A stretch of 5,793 nucleotides of DNA from contig MNUP01000038.1 in assembly GCA_001871075.1 (NCBI GenBank), positions 1-5,793 on the forward strand, written 5' to 3'. Source of the DNA: Candidatus Desantisbacteria bacterium CG1_02_49_89 (GTDB lineage Bacteria; Desantisbacteria; UBA1551). Each line of letters starts with the position of its first letter. The first letter of the stretch is position 1. Below are positions 1 through 5,560 of the stretch, in pieces. A program made the position numbers and the translations under genes. A model generated the notes under the pieces. It saw only the letters and a list, made by a program, of their open reading frames with translations. It searched no databases and was not told where the DNA came from.

Positions 1-216
1 TGGAGCCGTTTGGAACCATTCAAAAAATTCGCCCAGATGATTGAGCGCCACTGGGATGACATCGTCAGTTACTGTCATCCCGACAACAAAGTATCACTCG
101 GATTTATGGAAGGACTGAATAACAAAATCCGTGTAATGCAGCGCCGGGCATATGGTATCACAGATACAGAGTACCTGATGCTTAAAGTATTAACTTCGTT
201 TATAAAGGAACCCTAA
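1..216 (+). CDS. ISL3-family transposase, C-terminal fragment (5' end outside window)
   Basis: The frame is open from the first base, giving 71 residues before the TAA at 214-216. It has the C-terminal signature of ISL3 transposases: an amphipathic stretch (KKFAQMIERHWDDIVSY, residues 8-24), then GFMEGLNNKIRVMQRRAYG at residues 34-52. In this DDE family the Glu of the MEGLNNK stretch (residue 37) is the expected last catalytic acidic residue, and the following basic RR..YG segment is typical. The first two catalytic Asp residues would be upstream of the window. The internal TTG at position 10 is not a real start, since family homology continues before it. The stop lies about 38 nt before the element end, normal for a compact IS. 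The visible part has no frameshift, so the element may be intact. Confidence 0.9.
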   Translation, partial: WSRLEPFKKFAQMIERHWDDIVSYCHPDNKVSLGFMEGLNNKIRVMQRRAYGITDTEYLMLKVLTSFIKEP

Positions 217-233
217 AATGACCAATTTTTACG

Positions 234-254
234 CACAAGAAACCCAGAAGACCC
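234..254. repeat. Right terminal inverted repeat of the ISL3-type element
   Basis: This 21-nt segment follows the transposase stop and ends in GAAGACCC. On the opposite strand it reads GGGTCTTC followed by TGGGTTTCTTGTG, an arrangement typical of ISL3-family termini (family knowledge from memory). Its left partner is outside the window, so the pairing itself cannot be confirmed. The inner limit of the repeat is approximate. Confidence 0.7.
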
Positions 255-827: not shown

Positions 828-875
828 AAAAAAGGCGCTCGTCCGCCACCAATGCTTTGACGGATTCAGCGCCTT
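828..875 (-). terminator. Intrinsic terminator-like hairpin in the RHS gene leader
   Basis: Read on the - strand, AAGGCGCT (875-868) pairs perfectly with AGCGCCTT (839-832). A further inner helix TCCGTC (864-859) with GGCGGA (847-842) contains one G-U pair. The loop is 858-848. A run of six T follows at 833-828, two of them inside the stem. This is a textbook rho-independent shape for the - strand only, since the other strand has no comparable T-tract. It ends about 20 nt before the ATG of the RHS gene, too close to leave room for a full promoter between them. Transcripts entering the gene probably cross it, so it may act as an attenuator rather than as the end of an upstream operon (inference). 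Confidence 0.7.
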
Positions 876-895
876 GTGTTTATTCCATAAATCCC

Positions 896-960
896 GCTAT
901 TCTCCCTGCCCGAAGCATTATCCCGATTGGCATATATCAGGATCTTCGGACAGCAATAGC
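896..960 (-). promoter_or_regulatory. Structured leader element upstream of the RHS gene (candidate regulatory RNA)
   Basis: On the - strand three nested helices stack into one long hairpin. GCTATT (960-955) pairs with AATAGC (901-896). CTGTCCGAAG (953-944) pairs with CTTCGGGCAG (915-906), with one G-U pair. ATCC (943-940) pairs with GGAT (923-920). Internal loops are G954 against 905-902 and a one-sided bulge AATG (919-916); the apical loop is 939-924. Twenty base pairs in 65 nt is well beyond chance, and the terminator-like hairpin follows 20 nt later. A small hairpin TTTAT/ATAAA (891-879) lies between them. I cannot assign it to a known RNA class. No convincing promoter is visible; the AT-rich stretch at about 965-990 is a possible place for one. 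It could instead be a DNA-level element such as a mobile-element end. Confidence 0.5.
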
Positions 961-1047
961 CTAATTCTTCTATTTTTTTACTTAAAAACAAAAATCCCCC
1001 GAGCGTTTACAATTTCTGCCCTGTTCGGCGCTCCTTTCTGGCTCTTC

Positions 1048-1092
1048 GGGTTCAATCCTCCACCAAGATTGGCGGACAGGTGAATTGAACCC
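1048..1092. repeat. Palindromic hairpin element, 9-bp perfect outer stem
   Basis: GGGTTCAAT (1048-1056) is the exact reverse complement of ATTGAACCC (1084-1092). Inside, CC-A-CCA (1060-1065) pairs with TGG-C-GG (1070-1075) around a four-base loop, with one mismatch. It lies in the gene-free stretch between the oxidoreductase and the RHS leader and encodes nothing convincing. It is probably a dispersed intergenic repeat, but copy number cannot be judged from this window. Confidence 0.7.
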
Positions 1093-1097
1093 CTATC

Positions 1098-1118
1098 CGC
1101 CCCGACTAAATCGGGGCG
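1098..1118. repeat. GC-rich palindrome, 8-bp stem
   Basis: CGCCCCGA (1098-1105) pairs exactly with TCGGGGCG (1111-1118) around the loop CTAAA. No T-tract follows on either strand, so it is not a standard terminator. It directly follows the previous palindrome and precedes the next, as one of a chain of hairpins. Confidence 0.7.
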
Positions 1119-1124
1119 AGACCT

Positions 1125-1146
1125 CGCTCCGATGGACATCGGAGCG
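1125..1146. repeat. GC-rich palindrome, 9-bp stem
   Basis: CGCTCCGAT (1125-1133) pairs exactly with ATCGGAGCG (1138-1146) around the four-base loop GGAC. It lies 6 bases from the preceding palindrome. Neither strand shows a following T-run. Confidence 0.7.
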
Positions 1147-1151
1147 GGCAA

Positions 1152-1187
1152 AATCCCCCTCAATCCCCCTTTAATAAAGGGGGAATT
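1152..1187. repeat. C5/G5 palindrome with a preceding direct repeat
   Basis: AATCCCCCT occurs twice in direct orientation (1152-1160 and 1162-1170). The second copy opens a palindrome in which CCCCCTTT (1165-1172) pairs with AAAGGGGG (1176-1183) around a three-base loop. Very similar C-rich/G-rich interspersed sequences occur between genes in many environmental bacterial genomes (from memory), so this is probably a multi-copy intergenic repeat. Confidence 0.7.
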
Positions 1188-1210
1188 AACAAACGCAAGC
1201 CTCCCATCAA

Positions 1211-1256
1211 GGCGGGCAAGCCCGCCCCTACGCGTAGGCTGAAACCTTGTCCTACG
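1211..1256. repeat. Compound palindrome: GGCGGGC hairpin plus CCTACGCGTAGG
   Basis: GGCGGGC (1211-1217) pairs exactly with GCCCGCC (1220-1226) over only two loop bases. The next 12 bases (1227-1238) form the perfect palindrome CCTACGCGTAGG. Its right half CGTAGG (1233-1238) can pair instead with CCTACG at 1251-1256. This closes the gene-free stretch 961-1311. The remaining bases 1257-1311, just after the oxidoreductase stop, show no clear terminator or gene. Confidence 0.65.
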
Positions 1257-1311
1257 AAATACGATATAGAATGGGCATCAATCCTCATCTGCCGGCTATC
1301 TACTGGTAAAA

Positions 1312-2337
1312 CTACCATTTTAACAAGATCCTTTTGCCTTTATTAGATGACTCGTAAATGGCAAGGGCGACTTTGAGGGCGTCCTTAGCCTCTTCAGGCT
1401 TAACTTCGCATTCTTTTCCGGTAATGATGCAGTCTACGAAGTGATTCACTGCGCACATAAGGGAATACGAGTGCGGGTGGACATCAACAGGCTGCTCGGT
1501 CGGTATGACTTTCGGCTGGTTCGCTTTTATCAGCGTAAGCTGGTCAGTCGAAGTGTCTTTTATGTGTATCGAACCGTCTGTCCCGTATATGTTCCTTGTC
1601 TCCATCCAGCCTTCTGAAGTAACCGTATATGAAAGCGCTGCCGAACCGAGAACGTTGTTCTCAAACTCAAAAATAACTGCTGTGTTGTCGTCCGCCTTGT
1701 TCGCGGGCTTGACAAGCAGCTTCCTCGCGGTCCCGGTGACAGCAATGGGCCTGCCGAAGAAATGCAGCATGGTATAGATCACGTGGTATCCGGTGTCTAT
1801 CATTACCCCGCCGCCTGCCTTTTCCCACGAGGCTTTCCAGTAGTTTGGATCGTTCATTTCGTTGATGCAGTTCCCGGTCACGCAGTAAACAACCAGGAAA
1901 GGCTTTCCTATCGCTCCGCTGTCAAGAAGTTTTTTCGTTTCCTTATGATAGGGCATGAACCTCTGGTTCATTTCGATAAAAAGGCGCCTGCCTAATTTTT
2001 TTGCAGTACCGATCATATCGTCCGCTTCTTTCAGGGTCATGGCTATGGGCTTTTCGCAGATCACGTCCTTGCCTGCCTTTAATGAATCGATAGCCAGGCG
2101 GTGGTGGAGCCAGTGCGGGACGCAGATATCCACGGCTTTTATCGACAGATCCTTAAGCATTTCCCTGTAATCAGCATACGCTTTCTTCGCTTTCGGAAAA
2201 GCCTGCTGGGCTCTTTTGATCGCGGCTTCGTTTGTGTCAGCAATGCTTATTTCGTCAACATTCTTGTTCTGCTGCAGGGCGTTAAGATGCCCCTGCGCAA
2301 TACTCCCAGCCCCGATAAGACCGACCTTGATCCCCAT
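1312..2337 (-). CDS. Gfo/Idh/MocA-family NAD(P)-dependent oxidoreductase
   Basis: The 341-residue product has the usual two-domain length of this family of sugar and inositol dehydrogenases. The N-terminal Rossmann fold shows a GAGSIAQGH dinucleotide-binding turn at residues 9-17 and an acidic residue ending the second strand (D34 in SIADTNE), which in such folds usually favours NAD(H). The family signature EKP lies at 95-97 (CEKPIAMTLKEADDM); its Lys is the usual cofactor/catalytic lysine. The second part of the active site is GGGVMIDTGYHVIY at 175-188, with D181 and H185 in the typical D..G.H positions. The start ATG is preceded by GGGGG with 5 nt spacing. An overlapping ATG 4 nt upstream is in another frame. 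It is the last gene of the - strand cluster, 137 nt after the nucleotidyltransferase. Such enzymes oxidise or reduce a sugar or nucleotide-sugar hydroxyl; the neighbours suggest an envelope polysaccharide role, but the substrate cannot be read from sequence. Confidence 0.92.
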   Translation of the reverse strand: MGIKVGLIGAGSIAQGHLNALQQNKNVDEISIADTNEAAIKRAQQAFPKAKKAYADYREMLKDLSIKAVDICVPHWLHHRLAIDSLKAGKDVICEKPIAMTLKEADDMIGTAKKLGRRLFIEMNQRFMPYHKETKKLLDSGAIGKPFLVVYCVTGNCINEMNDPNYWKASWEKAGGGVMIDTGYHVIYTMLHFFGRPIAVTGTARKLLVKPANKADDNTAVIFEFENNVLGSAALSYTVTSEGWMETRNIYGTDGSIHIKDTSTDQLTLIKANQPKVIPTEQPVDVHPHSYSLMCAVNHFVDCIITGKECEVKPEEAKDALKVALAIYESSNKGKRILLKW

Positions 2338-2355
2338 TCATTCCCCCTTTTTTTT

Positions 2356-2469
2356 AGTATCAAGTATCAAGAGTCAAGAGTCAAGTTTAATAATACCGCT
2401 ATTTATAAATTAAATCGAACCAGATAGTTTTTTGAATATGAATTTACTTGATACTTGACTCTTGACACT
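2356..2469. repeat. Inverted pair of 7-bp tandem repeat arrays (AGTATCA / AGAGTCA type)
   Basis: On the + strand, 2356-2386 consists of AGTATCA twice, AGAGTCA twice and a partial AGT. At 2446-2469 the same kind of unit appears inverted: its reverse complement reads AGTGTCA, AGAGTCA, AGTATCA, AGT. The arms are separated by about 59 AT-rich bases and can fold into a long imperfect hairpin; the best aligned run is TCAAGAGTCAAG, 12 bases. The right array begins 5 bases after the stop of the thymidylyltransferase gene. The left array ends about 8 bases before the Shine-Dalgarno of the oxidoreductase. No T-tract follows in the transcription direction, so it is not a simple intrinsic terminator. It resembles the short heptanucleotide tandem repeats known between genes in cyanobacteria and other genomes. 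Confidence 0.85.
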
Positions 2470-2474
2470 GTTTT

Positions 2475-3536
2475 CTAAACAACGCCTACCTGGCTGCTGT
2501 CCCCCAGCATAAATCTGTATGCCGCCGGCTTGTGCGGGTACTTCGAAACAACAACGCTTTTTCCGATAAGGCTGTCCTCGATACGCGAAATGTTCTCGAT
2601 CTTTGAATTCTCCAGCACCATGCTGTGCTCTATCTCGCTGTTCTCTATGACAGCATTGCTGGAAACTGAAGTAAACGGCCCTATGTAGGAATTGGTTATT
2701 TTCGCCCCTGACCCGATTATAGCCGGCCCCCTGATCACGCTTTTTGAAACTATAGCTCCTTTTTCCACCACGACCTTGCCGTAAAGCTTGGATTCGCTGT
2801 CGACCCTGCCTTTCCTCGAAGGCTCAAGCCCGTCGAGGATTATGCGGTTTGCCTCAAGAAGGTCTTCCAGCTTGCCTGTGTCCTTCCACCAGCCGGTTAT
2901 GATATGCGACTGCACGCTGAACTTTTTGTTTATAAGGTAGGAAATGGCGTCTGTTATTTCAAGCTCGTTCCGCCTGGAAGGCTTTATGTGCCTTATTGCC
3001 TTGAATATGTTGTGGTCGAAAAGGTACACCCCGACCAGGGCAAGGTCGGTCTTCGGTTTCCCGGGCTTTTCCTCAAGGCGCACCACCTTCCCGTTCTTCA
3101 GCTCAGCAACCCCGAATTCCTGCGGATTTTTAACGTGTGCCAGAAGTATCATGGCATTGGGTTTCGATTTCTTGAACTCGTCTATGAAAGAATTCACGCC
3201 GTCCTTCACTATGTTATCCCCGAGGTACATTACAAACGGGTCCTTCTTCAGGAATTTCTCGGAGATCTTTACCGCGTGCGCCAGACCCAGGGGAGCCTCC
3301 TGCTCTATGTAAGTCAGTTTCACCCCCCACTTTTTCCCGTCGCCCAGGGCAGTTTTTATTTCATTCTTTGTCTCACCCACGACGATCCCGATATCCGTTA
3401 TGCCGGCATCCCTTATCGCTTCAAGCCCGTAATAAATAATGGGCTTGTTCGCGATCGGTATAAGCTGTTTTGCAGAAGTATGCGTTATAGGGCGCAGCCT
3501 TGTGCCCTTTCCACCGCTCAGTATCAAAGCCTTCAT
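2475..3536 (-). CDS. rfbA: Glucose-1-phosphate thymidylyltransferase, long form
   Basis: This enzyme class joins dTTP and glucose 1-phosphate to give dTDP-glucose and pyrophosphate, the first step to dTDP-rhamnose and related sugars, in the cytoplasm. The 353-residue product has the nucleotidyltransferase core: the nucleotide-binding loop GGKGTRLRP at residues 8-16, KQLIPIANKPIIYY at 23-36, the metal-binding LGDN at 105-108 (Asp107), EEKP at 155-158 and the substrate-side WWKDTGK at 216-222. About 100 C-terminal residues (roughly 250-335) are hexapeptide-like repeats expected to form a left-handed beta-helix. This, with the conserved end (YRFMLGDSSQVGVV), marks the long RmlA form (TIGR01208 type; StrD-like) rather than the shorter enterobacterial RmlA. 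The ATG has a strong GGAGG at 3542-3546 with 5 nt spacing. No other dTDP-sugar genes are present in the window, so the final sugar is unknown. A different NTP or sugar preference is possible in this superfamily. Confidence 0.9.
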   Translation of the reverse strand: MKALILSGGKGTRLRPITHTSAKQLIPIANKPIIYYGLEAIRDAGITDIGIVVGETKNEIKTALGDGKKWGVKLTYIEQEAPLGLAHAVKISEKFLKKDPFVMYLGDNIVKDGVNSFIDEFKKSKPNAMILLAHVKNPQEFGVAELKNGKVVRLEEKPGKPKTDLALVGVYLFDHNIFKAIRHIKPSRRNELEITDAISYLINKKFSVQSHIITGWWKDTGKLEDLLEANRIILDGLEPSRKGRVDSESKLYGKVVVEKGAIVSKSVIRGPAIIGSGAKITNSYIGPFTSVSSNAVIENSEIEHSMVLENSKIENISRIEDSLIGKSVVVSKYPHKPAAYRFMLGDSSQVGVV

Positions 3537-3563
3537 TTTTTCCTCCGATAAATACCGTTGCCG

Positions 3564-3618
3564 GTTGTCAGTTGTGAGCTATGGATTAACTGACAACTCT
3601 CAACTCACAACTGATAAC
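3564..3618. repeat. Inverted 7-bp repeat array (GTTGTCA / GTTGTGA type) between lptD and rfbA
   Basis: The left arm carries GTTGTCA and GTTGTGA (3564-3577). The right arm carries TGACAAC, TCTCAAC, TCACAAC and TGATAAC (3591-3618), preceded by a degenerate GATTAAC. The left arm can pair in two ways: 3564-3573 with 3588-3597 (10 bp, perfect), or 3564-3578 with 3604-3618 (15 bp, one G-U). It starts 4 bases after the lptD stop and ends about 16 bases before the rfbA Shine-Dalgarno, so it fills most of the 86-nt gap. It is related in style, but not in sequence, to the array downstream of rfbA. Confidence 0.85.
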
Positions 3619-3622
3619 TATC

Positions 3623-5560
3623 TTAAAAAATACTCGGATGGAACTGGACGCTCATGCCCGGGAATGCCTTTAATCCGGCCTGCAGCCAGATCTCCTGCGA
3701 CAAAGCGCGGTACGTCAGCGAAACATCCCAGCAGTGAAGGTCCCTTGCAATAATGAGATCAACGACATCAAACCTGTTGTTCATAAGATCAAAACTGCTG
3801 GAAACCGTCAACTGGTATTTCCCAAGGAATGTTTTAATGCCGGGAAAATTCAGCTCCGAAGTAAGGCTCAACTGCATATAGTTGCCGTAATAATACTGCG
3901 TTCCGAGCTTTACGTTCATAATATCATTTATCCATTCGATATAAGAAATATTCTGCGACGTGTTTTTATATACGTGGTATTTAGTGCTGGAGAAGAACCT
4001 CAACCTTCCAGCCGGGTTGACCATTATGTCCAGCCGCGCTCTCTTGAACCTGTCCCAGATATATTCCTGCGAAAGCAGATCATAGTTTCCGCTGAGTTCG
4101 ATGCTTGTGATCCTGTCTGTATAAATTATAAATCCGCGTACATACTGCGACGCCGCCGGGGAAACCACCGAAGTATCACCTTCAACTATGGACTCTATAT
4201 TATACGTCGCTTCTGTAAGGAAGTAACCTTTCCGCATTCTGTAACGCGGCCCGATTTTCGCCCTGTATCCGGGTAGAAACCTGTCTCTGTTATGGTATGC
4301 GCCCTGAACTCCTACCCCCGAAACCAATCCCAGGCTGTCCGTCAGCTTCAGCTGTTCAGGAGTCACATTCAGCCAGTTGTCTGAAAAAACATAATTGTCG
4401 TAATTTGTATAGTAATTGCCGGTTTTTGTGGAAAAATCGGCGTACAAGGGCATGCTCCAAAGCCTTACCGGAGACGAATATAAACCCAGCACCGGCAGGG
4501 AAGTCTGCACGGCTTCTTTGCTGTCCTCCCTTTTAATATCCATCTGGAAATTTAAATACCTACCCAGGGGAGTATTGTAACAAACGTAGGCCGTGGACTT
4601 ACGTCTTACCCAGTTCAAAGGCGGGCCGAAATAGGGCCCGAACTCCCTGTCAAAACCCATGTCGCTGAGAAGGTATACGTAAATAAAAGAACTGCCTTTT
4701 TCAGGCCTTAGTTTAAGATCCGCCTTGTACCGGTCCGTATCCCTGTCCCTTACATAATAAATTGATGACGCACCCTCATACCTGTTTGCGCTGTATTCAA
4801 ACTCTGACCCCAAACCGAAACCTTTCTTTTCCATGTATTCGCCGAACACGTTGCCATACAGGGCTGACCTGATTGAATAATTGTAACCTGCCTGCACATA
4901 CCATCCTTTATCGGCGCTGTATCCCACAGTGGGGATAAGCCAGGATATCCTTCCTTTTTTGAGGGGAAACGTAAAAACAGGAATGTAAAAAACCGGGACG
5001 GACCCCAGGAAAAGCCCTACGTTGAAAGCGACTATGCTGTCTTCCGGATATATACTGATGCGGCTTGCCCGGAGACTGTAATGCGGCTCAGGCAGATCGC
5101 ACGTTGTGCAAAGCCCGTTGCTTACCGTCAGTTCCTTATCGCTGAGCTTCTCGATCTTTTTGCCGCGGTAGAAGAGTGGCTGAAAAGAAGTGGAAGCATT
5201 CTGAACTATTCCCCTTTCGGATTTTATGCCGTACGCGACTGAATCCCCCTCGATCTTACCGGACCTGGACATAAAAGATATATTGCCGCTTGCCAGTATC
5301 TCTTCAGATTCCACATTAACGCGCAGGTAATCGGAATATATCTCAACATCCTTGTAACGGACGCCTACCTTGCCCCAGCCTTCAACAATGCCTTTTCCCT
5401 TATTATATTCCAGGTAGTCTGACTCGCAGTATATAGGAGTGGTTCCGGTATCTCCCGGCGCTGGCCCTGTTTCAACGGCTGCAAAGAGGAATTCCGCGGG
5501 GATAAAAAAAATAAGGCTGAATGCCGTAAAAAGAAGATGGGATATTTTGGATGGATGCAT
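3623..5560 (-). CDS. lptD: LPS-assembly outer-membrane protein LptD (OstA/Imp)
   Basis: LptD is the outer-membrane barrel that, plugged by LptE, inserts lipopolysaccharide into the outer leaflet. Starting at ATG 5558-5560 the product is 645 residues: a signal peptide with a hydrophobic core at about residues 9-28 and likely cleavage near FAA, an OstA-like beta-jellyroll at roughly 42-150 (YCESDYLEYNKGKGIVEG, then LASGNISFMSRSGKIEGDS), and a C-terminal barrel. The barrel entry is typical: CTTCDLPEPHYSLRA (151-165), then VPVFYIPVFTFPL (188-200) and LIP (208-210). The conserved C-terminal segment is RDLHCW (606-611), and the protein ends in Phe, as BAM substrates often do. A longer reading from TTG at 5620 would add 20 charged residues before the signal peptide and overlap the upstream gene, so I reject it. 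The start lies 19 nt after the upstream stop with only a weak ribosome site (CCGGA), suggesting translational coupling. It is shorter than the E. coli protein (784 residues, from memory), as in many non-enteric homologues. Confidence 0.93.
   Translation of the reverse strand: MHPSKISHLLFTAFSLIFFIPAEFLFAAVETGPAPGDTGTTPIYCESDYLEYNKGKGIVEGWGKVGVRYKDVEIYSDYLRVNVESEEILASGNISFMSRSGKIEGDSVAYGIKSERGIVQNASTSFQPLFYRGKKIEKLSDKELTVSNGLCTTCDLPEPHYSLRASRISIYPEDSIVAFNVGLFLGSVPVFYIPVFTFPLKKGRISWLIPTVGYSADKGWYVQAGYNYSIRSALYGNVFGEYMEKKGFGLGSEFEYSANRYEGASSIYYVRDRDTDRYKADLKLRPEKGSSFIYVYLLSDMGFDREFGPYFGPPLNWVRRKSTAYVCYNTPLGRYLNFQMDIKREDSKEAVQTSLPVLGLYSSPVRLWSMPLYADFSTKTGNYYTNYDNYVFSDNWLNVTPEQLKLTDSLGLVSGVGVQGAYHNRDRFLPGYRAKIGPRYRMRKGYFLTEATYNIESIVEGDTSVVSPAASQYVRGFIIYTDRITSIELSGNYDLLSQEYIWDRFKRARLDIMVNPAGRLRFFSSTKYHVYKNTSQNISYIEWINDIMNVKLGTQYYYGNYMQLSLTSELNFPGIKTFLGKYQLTVSSSFDLMNNRFDVVDLIIARDLHCWDVSLTYRALSQEIWLQAGLKAFPGMSVQFHPSIF

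What the first reader, a model, noticed from the sequence alone, without database searches (positions are those of the whole stretch)
828..960. Unassigned structured leader with a terminator directly before a secreted RHS gene
Seen: a 20-bp composite hairpin (896-960), a small hairpin (879-891), and a 14-bp hairpin with a T-tract (828-875) lie in series on the - strand, ending about 20 nt before the RHS start codon. An intrinsic terminator this close to a start codon leaves no room for a promoter after it. Transcripts must therefore read through it, which is the architecture of a riboswitch or other attenuation leader. I could not match it to a known class.
Basis: partly seen in the sequence, partly recalled or inferred. 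Interest (0 to 1): 0.6.

Follow-up and report, generated by a model that had tools for sequence, protein, structure and literature searches.

The report
Shared attenuator-type leader before RHS genes
Every recognisable RHS surface-protein gene in this genome is preceded by the same short leader, a small reading frame that runs into a transcription terminator, which looks like a ribosome-controlled on/off gate of a known general type and not like a riboswitch; the copy in this window is probably a dead relic.

Summary
The terminator (828-875, - strand) and the hairpin before it (896-960) are real and fold better than every shuffle; the small hairpin (879-891) is not conserved. Nothing in Rfam matches. 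The genome holds six more copies ending in an intact terminator, a seventh cut by an IS3-type element, and a terminator-only fragment. All six RHS (DUF6531) genes found in the assembly, including this one, are headed by a copy. Five further copies plus the IS-cut one have near-perfect TTGACA/TATAAT promoters 5' of the terminator. Terminator pairing survives complete replacement of its inner stem. The upstream hairpin is absent from one copy and shows no covariation. What recurs is a Shine-Dalgarno site plus start codon opening a 22-54 codon frame that ends in, 10 nt before, or just past the terminator. The peptide is not under clear purifying selection. Best explanation: ribosome-coupled transcription attenuation, in the manner of pyrBI or Streptococcus gallolyticus pil1: a ribosome on the leader frame blocks the terminator and lets RNA polymerase enter the RHS gene. 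A riboswitch is not supported. The window's copy has no recognisable promoter, and its RHS gene is cut by an ISL3-family element, so here it is probably a relic. The mechanism is inferred; no transcript data exist.

The parts
828..875 (-). Intrinsic terminator: AAGGCGCT outer arm, 7-pair inner stem, AGCGCC arm, T6 tract
   Evidence: Fold -22.0 kcal/mol, z -3.7; pairing kept in paralogues whose inner stem is entirely different
866..991 (-). Putative leader reading frame, TTG start, 41 codons, MFLSKKIEELGYCCPKILIYANRDNASGRENSGIYGINTRR, TGA stop just after the outer 5' arm of the terminator
   Evidence: Frame and start read; equivalent frames in L002-L006 and L040; chance per copy 1.4-13% by dinucleotide shuffling
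995..1000 (-). Shine-Dalgarno-like GGGGGA for the leader frame
   Evidence: a 16S-type 3' end GGATCACCTCCTTT is present in the genome
896..960 (-). Hairpin inside the leader frame, possible RNA polymerase pause hairpin
   Evidence: z -4.8; a hairpin is present here in six of seven copies but with different pairs, absent in L040, no covariation
866..900 (-). Conserved core (AATAGCGGGATTTATGGAATAAACACAAGGCGCTGA) linking hairpin and terminator
   Evidence: 78-nt core with terminator is 85-92% identical among L001, L002, L003, L005 and L006
255..808 (-). 5' part of a secreted RHS-family gene (DUF6531), Shine-Dalgarno GGAG at 814-817; interrupted at about 255
   Evidence: Pfam PF20148 E 1.5e-11; sequence
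1..254 (+). End of an ISL3-family insertion sequence (transposase C-terminus 1-216, terminal GGGTCTT... repeat ending near 254) inserted in the RHS gene
   Evidence: Pfam DDE_Tnp_ISL3 E 1.1e-15; terminal repeat read from the sequence, element boundary not verified against a second copy

Best explanation
The element is a ribosome-coupled transcription attenuator shared by the RHS genes of this genome. A sigma-70-type promoter makes a leader RNA that carries a small translated frame (22-54 codons). The frame ends in, just before or just past an intrinsic terminator that lies directly before the RHS gene. If a ribosome follows RNA polymerase closely enough, it covers the terminator's 5' arm, the hairpin cannot form and transcription continues into the RHS gene. 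If translation lags or fails, the terminator forms and the RHS gene stays off. The hairpin inside the frame may pause RNA polymerase so that the ribosome can catch up. Shown: terminator, its conserved pairing, position before all six RHS genes found, promoters 5' of it, frame geometry. Inferred: translation of the frame, antitermination by the ribosome, the pausing role. The window's own copy has no recognisable promoter and heads an interrupted gene, so it is probably a relic.
For: All six DUF6531 genes in the 2.48 Mb genome are headed by a copy. TTGACA-N16/17-TATAAT promoters lie 96-601 nt before the terminator in L002, L003, L004, L005 and L040, and before the IS-broken L007. Terminator pairing is kept through entire replacement of the inner stem: TCCGCCA/TGGCGGA, GAGTCTA/TAGACTC, and different again in L040 and L008. 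A Shine-Dalgarno-like site and start open a frame ending at -10 to +47 nt from the terminator arm in seven of seven full copies, and not in the non-RHS fragment L008. The spacer between promoter and frame tolerates large repeat insertions and shrinks to tens of nt in L040, so the frame plus terminator looks like the essential part. The 78-nt core is 85-92% identical in copies whose downstream genes show little or no DNA similarity. In E. coli, a stop codon within a few bp of a terminator cuts termination from about 90% to under 10% (PMC4824070). In S. gallolyticus pil1 the same layout controls a surface organelle (PMC3894217).
Against: No RNA, ribosome-profiling or reporter data. The frame's peptide evolves close to neutrally (pN/pS mostly 0.4-1.2), and two copies (L004, L006) have 1-nt deletions in it. 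The Shine-Dalgarno/frame signal is modest per copy (1.4-13% by chance), and copies are paralogues, so not independent. L006 and the window copy lack a recognisable promoter. No copy was found outside this genome, so conservation across species cannot be tested.
Confidence: 0.45

Rival explanations
1. A passive brake: a small independent transcript (sRNA or short gene) with its own promoter and terminator, with RHS expressed only by constant leaky read-through; no regulation by translation.
For: Strong promoter and strong terminator in most copies; leader peptide not under clear selection; large variable insertions in the leader.
Against: A frame ending at the terminator is found in all full copies, including the very short L040 leader; the core is strongly conserved next to unrelated genes.
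Confidence: 0.25
2. A riboswitch or protein-binding structured leader that chooses between terminator and antiterminator.
For: Hairpin at 896-960 with strongly negative z-scores in six copies; terminator before the gene; a conserved 30-nt linker.
Against: No Rfam match; no covariation in the hairpin; hairpin absent in L040; the terminator's 5' arm is free in leader folds of L002, L003 and L005; only one NusG gene, so no specialised LoaP/RfaH-type antiterminator found.
Confidence: 0.12
3. A non-functional or selfish repeat: RHS loci spread by duplication and recombination within this genome and carried their 5' flank along.
For: Found only in this genome; copies broken by insertions (window, L007); L004 looks like a recombinant of two leader types; a lone fragment sits between two response-regulator genes (L008).
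Against: Association with RHS is six of six; terminator pairing is preserved while its sequence is replaced; the leader is conserved where downstream DNA is not; consensus promoters are kept.
Confidence: 0.15

Closest known systems
Streptococcus gallolyticus pil1/pil3 attenuation-like leader (PMC3894217)
   Same: Promoter, leader frame, stem-loop terminator directly before surface-structure genes; the stop codon's position relative to the terminator sets read-through
   Different: There GCAGA repeats shift the frame (phase variation); here no tandem repeat is seen, and one leader type serves at least six RHS loci in an unrelated lineage
E. coli pyrBI attenuator (discussed in PMC4824070)
   Same: A leader frame (about 44 codons, figure from own knowledge) that extends into the terminator, with a coupled ribosome blocking termination
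   Different: pyrBI senses UTP through polymerase pausing (own knowledge); no nucleotide link or pause tract was shown here, and the genes are unrelated
Riboswitch or T-box type structured leaders (Rfam)
   Same: Structured leader ending in a terminator before a gene
   Different: No Rfam match, no conserved aptamer, no convincing antiterminator fold found
LoaP/RfaH-dependent leaders of long operons (own knowledge)
   Same: Terminator or leader hairpin before long surface-related genes
   Different: Only one NusG-family gene in the genome

Membership tests
Ribosome-coupled (leader-peptide) transcription attenuator | Promoter upstream of leader and terminator | tested here: met
   for L002-L005, L007, L040; not found for the window copy and L006
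Ribosome-coupled (leader-peptide) transcription attenuator | Intrinsic terminator before the first structural gene, pairing conserved | tested here: met
Ribosome-coupled (leader-peptide) transcription attenuator | Leader frame with ribosome-binding site reaching the terminator | tested here: met
   modest statistics per copy
Ribosome-coupled (leader-peptide) transcription attenuator | Translation of the leader changes termination | not testable with these tools
   Needs reporter or in vitro coupled assay
Riboswitch | Conserved aptamer structure supported by covariation | tested here: not met
   covariation no higher than in shuffles; hairpin absent in L040; Rfam negative
Riboswitch | Mutually exclusive antiterminator | tested here: inconclusive
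   Minimum-free-energy folds leave the 5' arm free in L002, L003 and L005 and only weakly paired in L004 and L040; single-structure folds only
S. gallolyticus pil1-type phase-variable leader | Tandem repeat in the leader frame that shifts its reading frame | tested here: not met
   Sequences read show no tandem repeat in the frame (by eye; no repeat finder run on the paralogues); two copies differ by 1-nt deletions

The most novel reading that the evidence does not exclude
A single leader-frame attenuator type acts as a genome-wide regulon switch for RHS surface proteins, coupling their expression to the state of translation (and, through single-base indels that move the stop codon, possibly varying between loci), in an isolated bacterial lineage.
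Probability: 0.25. Interest if true: 0.55.

Novelty: new member of a known kind. Interest (0 to 1): 0.38.

Why it matters
RHS proteins are large, costly and often used in contact-dependent competition; how they are switched on is poorly known (own knowledge). A shared attenuator before every RHS gene found in a genome would be a simple common control and gives a direct test: mutate the leader start codon and measure read-through. The same layout is known for pili in Streptococcus, so a second, unrelated case would suggest that leader-frame attenuation is a general way of gating surface proteins.

Tried and rejected
Rfam at permissive thresholds on the window and six paralogue loci: only chance hits. 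A relaxed pattern for the conserved core in 84,980 genomes and in viral contigs: 9 and 1 hits; the contexts look like coding sequence and none shows the element's terminator, so chance. Fifty-eight other genomes searched by DNA (only 20-25 nt chance-like matches) and the one same-order genome by covariance model (best E 3.7): no copy. LoaP/RfaH-type processive antitermination: only one NusG gene. The idea that hairpin 1 is a covarying RNA domain: no support. The idea that the leader encodes a conserved peptide or relic of a longer gene: pN/pS near 1 in most pairs; a search with the L006 peptide found only L006 and L005. A general terminator type of this genome: exact matches to the terminator pattern are all element copies. 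Two pattern calls failed on syntax.

Full report
Observation. The - strand of 815-985 folds at -56.7 kcal/mol, z -4.8, with no shuffle as good. The terminator 828-875 has 15 pairs and a U tract (-22.0 kcal/mol, z -3.7). The hairpin 896-960 has -29.3 kcal/mol, z -4.8. The T tract ends about 20 nt before the ATG of an RHS-family gene at 808 (DUF6531, E 1.5e-11). So two of the three hairpins are real; the third (879-891) is a five-pair hairpin that other copies do not keep.

The window copy itself is degraded. The RHS frame is cut near position 255 by the end of an ISL3-family element (transposase C-terminus at 1-216, E 1.1e-15; terminal GGGTCTT repeat read from the sequence). No consensus promoter was found on the - strand between 1040 and 1312, where paralogues carry one. 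The window is a whole contig (C63) of a 2.48 Mb, 150-contig genome.

Copies in the same genome. A DNA search and a covariance model (R1; search) give copies ending in a terminator at C63 (window), C19 (L002), C105 (L003), C143 (L004), C128 (L005), C133 (L006) and C101 (L040); a 5' half broken by an IS3-type element at C27 (L007); and a 3' fragment between two response-regulator/HTH_17 genes at C47 (L008; Pfam). DUF6531 has six matches in the genome, on C128, C101, C133, C19, C105 and C63, and every one has a copy before it. In C128 the copy heads a two-gene unit: a secreted HEAT-repeat gene, then an RHS gene with DUF5122 (beta-propeller), Ig-like and RHS repeats. L004 sits at a contig end, so its gene is unknown. 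The only same-order genome held has neither DUF6531 nor a significant model hit.

Anatomy across copies. Near-perfect promoters (TTGACA, 16-17 nt, TATAAT) lie before the terminator in L002, L003, L004, L005 and L040, and in the broken L007; the distance from the -10 box to the terminator is 96 nt in L040 and 333-601 nt in the others. Much of the extra length is dispersed repeats, so the promoter-proximal leader does not look essential. The terminator is kept although its inner stem is replaced wholesale: TCCGCCA/TGGCGGA in most, GAGTCTA/TAGACTC in L004, other pairs in L040 and L008. Predicted energies are -18.8 to -25.2 kcal/mol. A hairpin in the position of 896-960 forms in L001-L006 with z -2.9 to -4.8, but through different pairs in the L001-L004 and L005-L006 groups; column-wise covariation does not exceed shuffles, and L040 lacks the hairpin.

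Leader frame. In each full copy a Shine-Dalgarno-like site and a start codon open a frame: 41 codons in L001, L002 and L003 (TTG), 54 in L004 (TTG, frame shifted by a 1-nt deletion), 40 in L005 (ATG), 35 in L006 (ATG, 1-nt deletion), 22 in L040 (ATG). [quoted passage not shown] Dinucleotide shuffles of the upstream 145 nt give an equally good frame in 1.4% (L040) to 13% (L005) of cases, and L008, which does not precede an RHS gene, has none. The signal is modest per copy but recurs in leaders whose sequences differ. The peptide is not conserved by clear selection: pN/pS is mostly 0.4-1.2. So if the frame matters, its position does, not its product. A standard anti-Shine-Dalgarno 16S-type end is present in the genome.

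Mechanism. Promoter, short translated frame ending at a terminator, then a large secreted gene: this is the layout in which a closely following ribosome prevents terminator folding. In E. coli, moving a stop codon to 5 bp before a terminator reduced termination from about 90% to under 10%, the effect vanished when translation was removed, and it was lost when the stop was more than 27 nt away; terminators within the first 100 bp of a frame still work (PMC4824070). In S. gallolyticus, leader frames ending 28 nt or more before a terminator give mostly low pilus expression; those ending immediately before it, in it or beyond it give high expression, and destroying the leader start lowers expression (PMC3894217). 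By these rules all seven full copies are in the permissive geometry, with frame starts 113-116 nt (47 nt in L040) before the terminator, a range in which termination should be partial and sensitive to how closely the ribosome follows. I therefore favour ribosome-coupled attenuation at 0.45. Translation, coupling and any pausing role of the hairpin are inference.

Against a riboswitch: no Rfam family, no covariation, a promoter-to-gene leader of about 97 nt with no aptamer-like fold (L040), and no antiterminator pairing of the terminator's 5' arm in three of five leaders tested, with only weak pairing in the other two. Against LoaP/RfaH: one NusG gene. A passive terminator with leaky read-through remains a serious rival.

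Conservation pattern. The 78-nt core is 85-92% identical between L001, L002, L003, L005 and L006. The 700 nt downstream of the terminators show blastn similarity only among L002, L003 and L040 and in a 132-nt stretch of L003 and L006; L001 and L005 show none. L004 combines an L001-like 5' part with an L040-like terminator, so these modules recombine. Recent gene conversion could explain part of the identity; cross-species data are missing because no copy was found elsewhere.

Verdict. It is best filed as a likely new example of a known kind of leader, of interest because one leader type heads all recognisable RHS genes of a genome from an isolated lineage.

Noticed in passing
window 1-254: The RHS gene is interrupted by the end of an ISL3-family insertion sequence; the contig starts inside the element and no second copy is in the assembly.
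   Followed up: partly
L007 (C27) about 1570-3070: A leader copy with its promoter is cut by an IS3-type element directly after the ...CATGCCAATTGGGATC sequence.
   Followed up: no
L008 / L079 (C47:32678-32745): The core and terminator alone lie between two paralogous response regulators with HTH_17 domains, the second with its own strong promoter.
   Followed up: partly
window 1040-1260 and leaders of L002, L003, L004, L007: Dispersed palindromic repeats (e.g. CGCTCCGATG/CATCGGAGCG, TCCCCCTTTA/TAAAGGGGGA) have accumulated between promoter and leader frame.
   Followed up: no
L072 (C19) 2356-4835: The RHS gene downstream of L002 is broken into several frames (pseudogene or assembly error).
   Followed up: no
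L074 (C133) 5415-6686: The gene before the L006 leader weakly matches UPF0164/PorV with a fibronectin type III domain, a hint at a type IX-like secretion partner next to an RHS gene.
   Followed up: no
window 2362-2470: Near-inverted repeat AGTCAAGAGTCAAG... between the oxidoreductase and nucleotidyltransferase genes; weak sub-threshold Rfam hit (WsnRNA46, 24.4 bits), probably chance.
   Followed up: no
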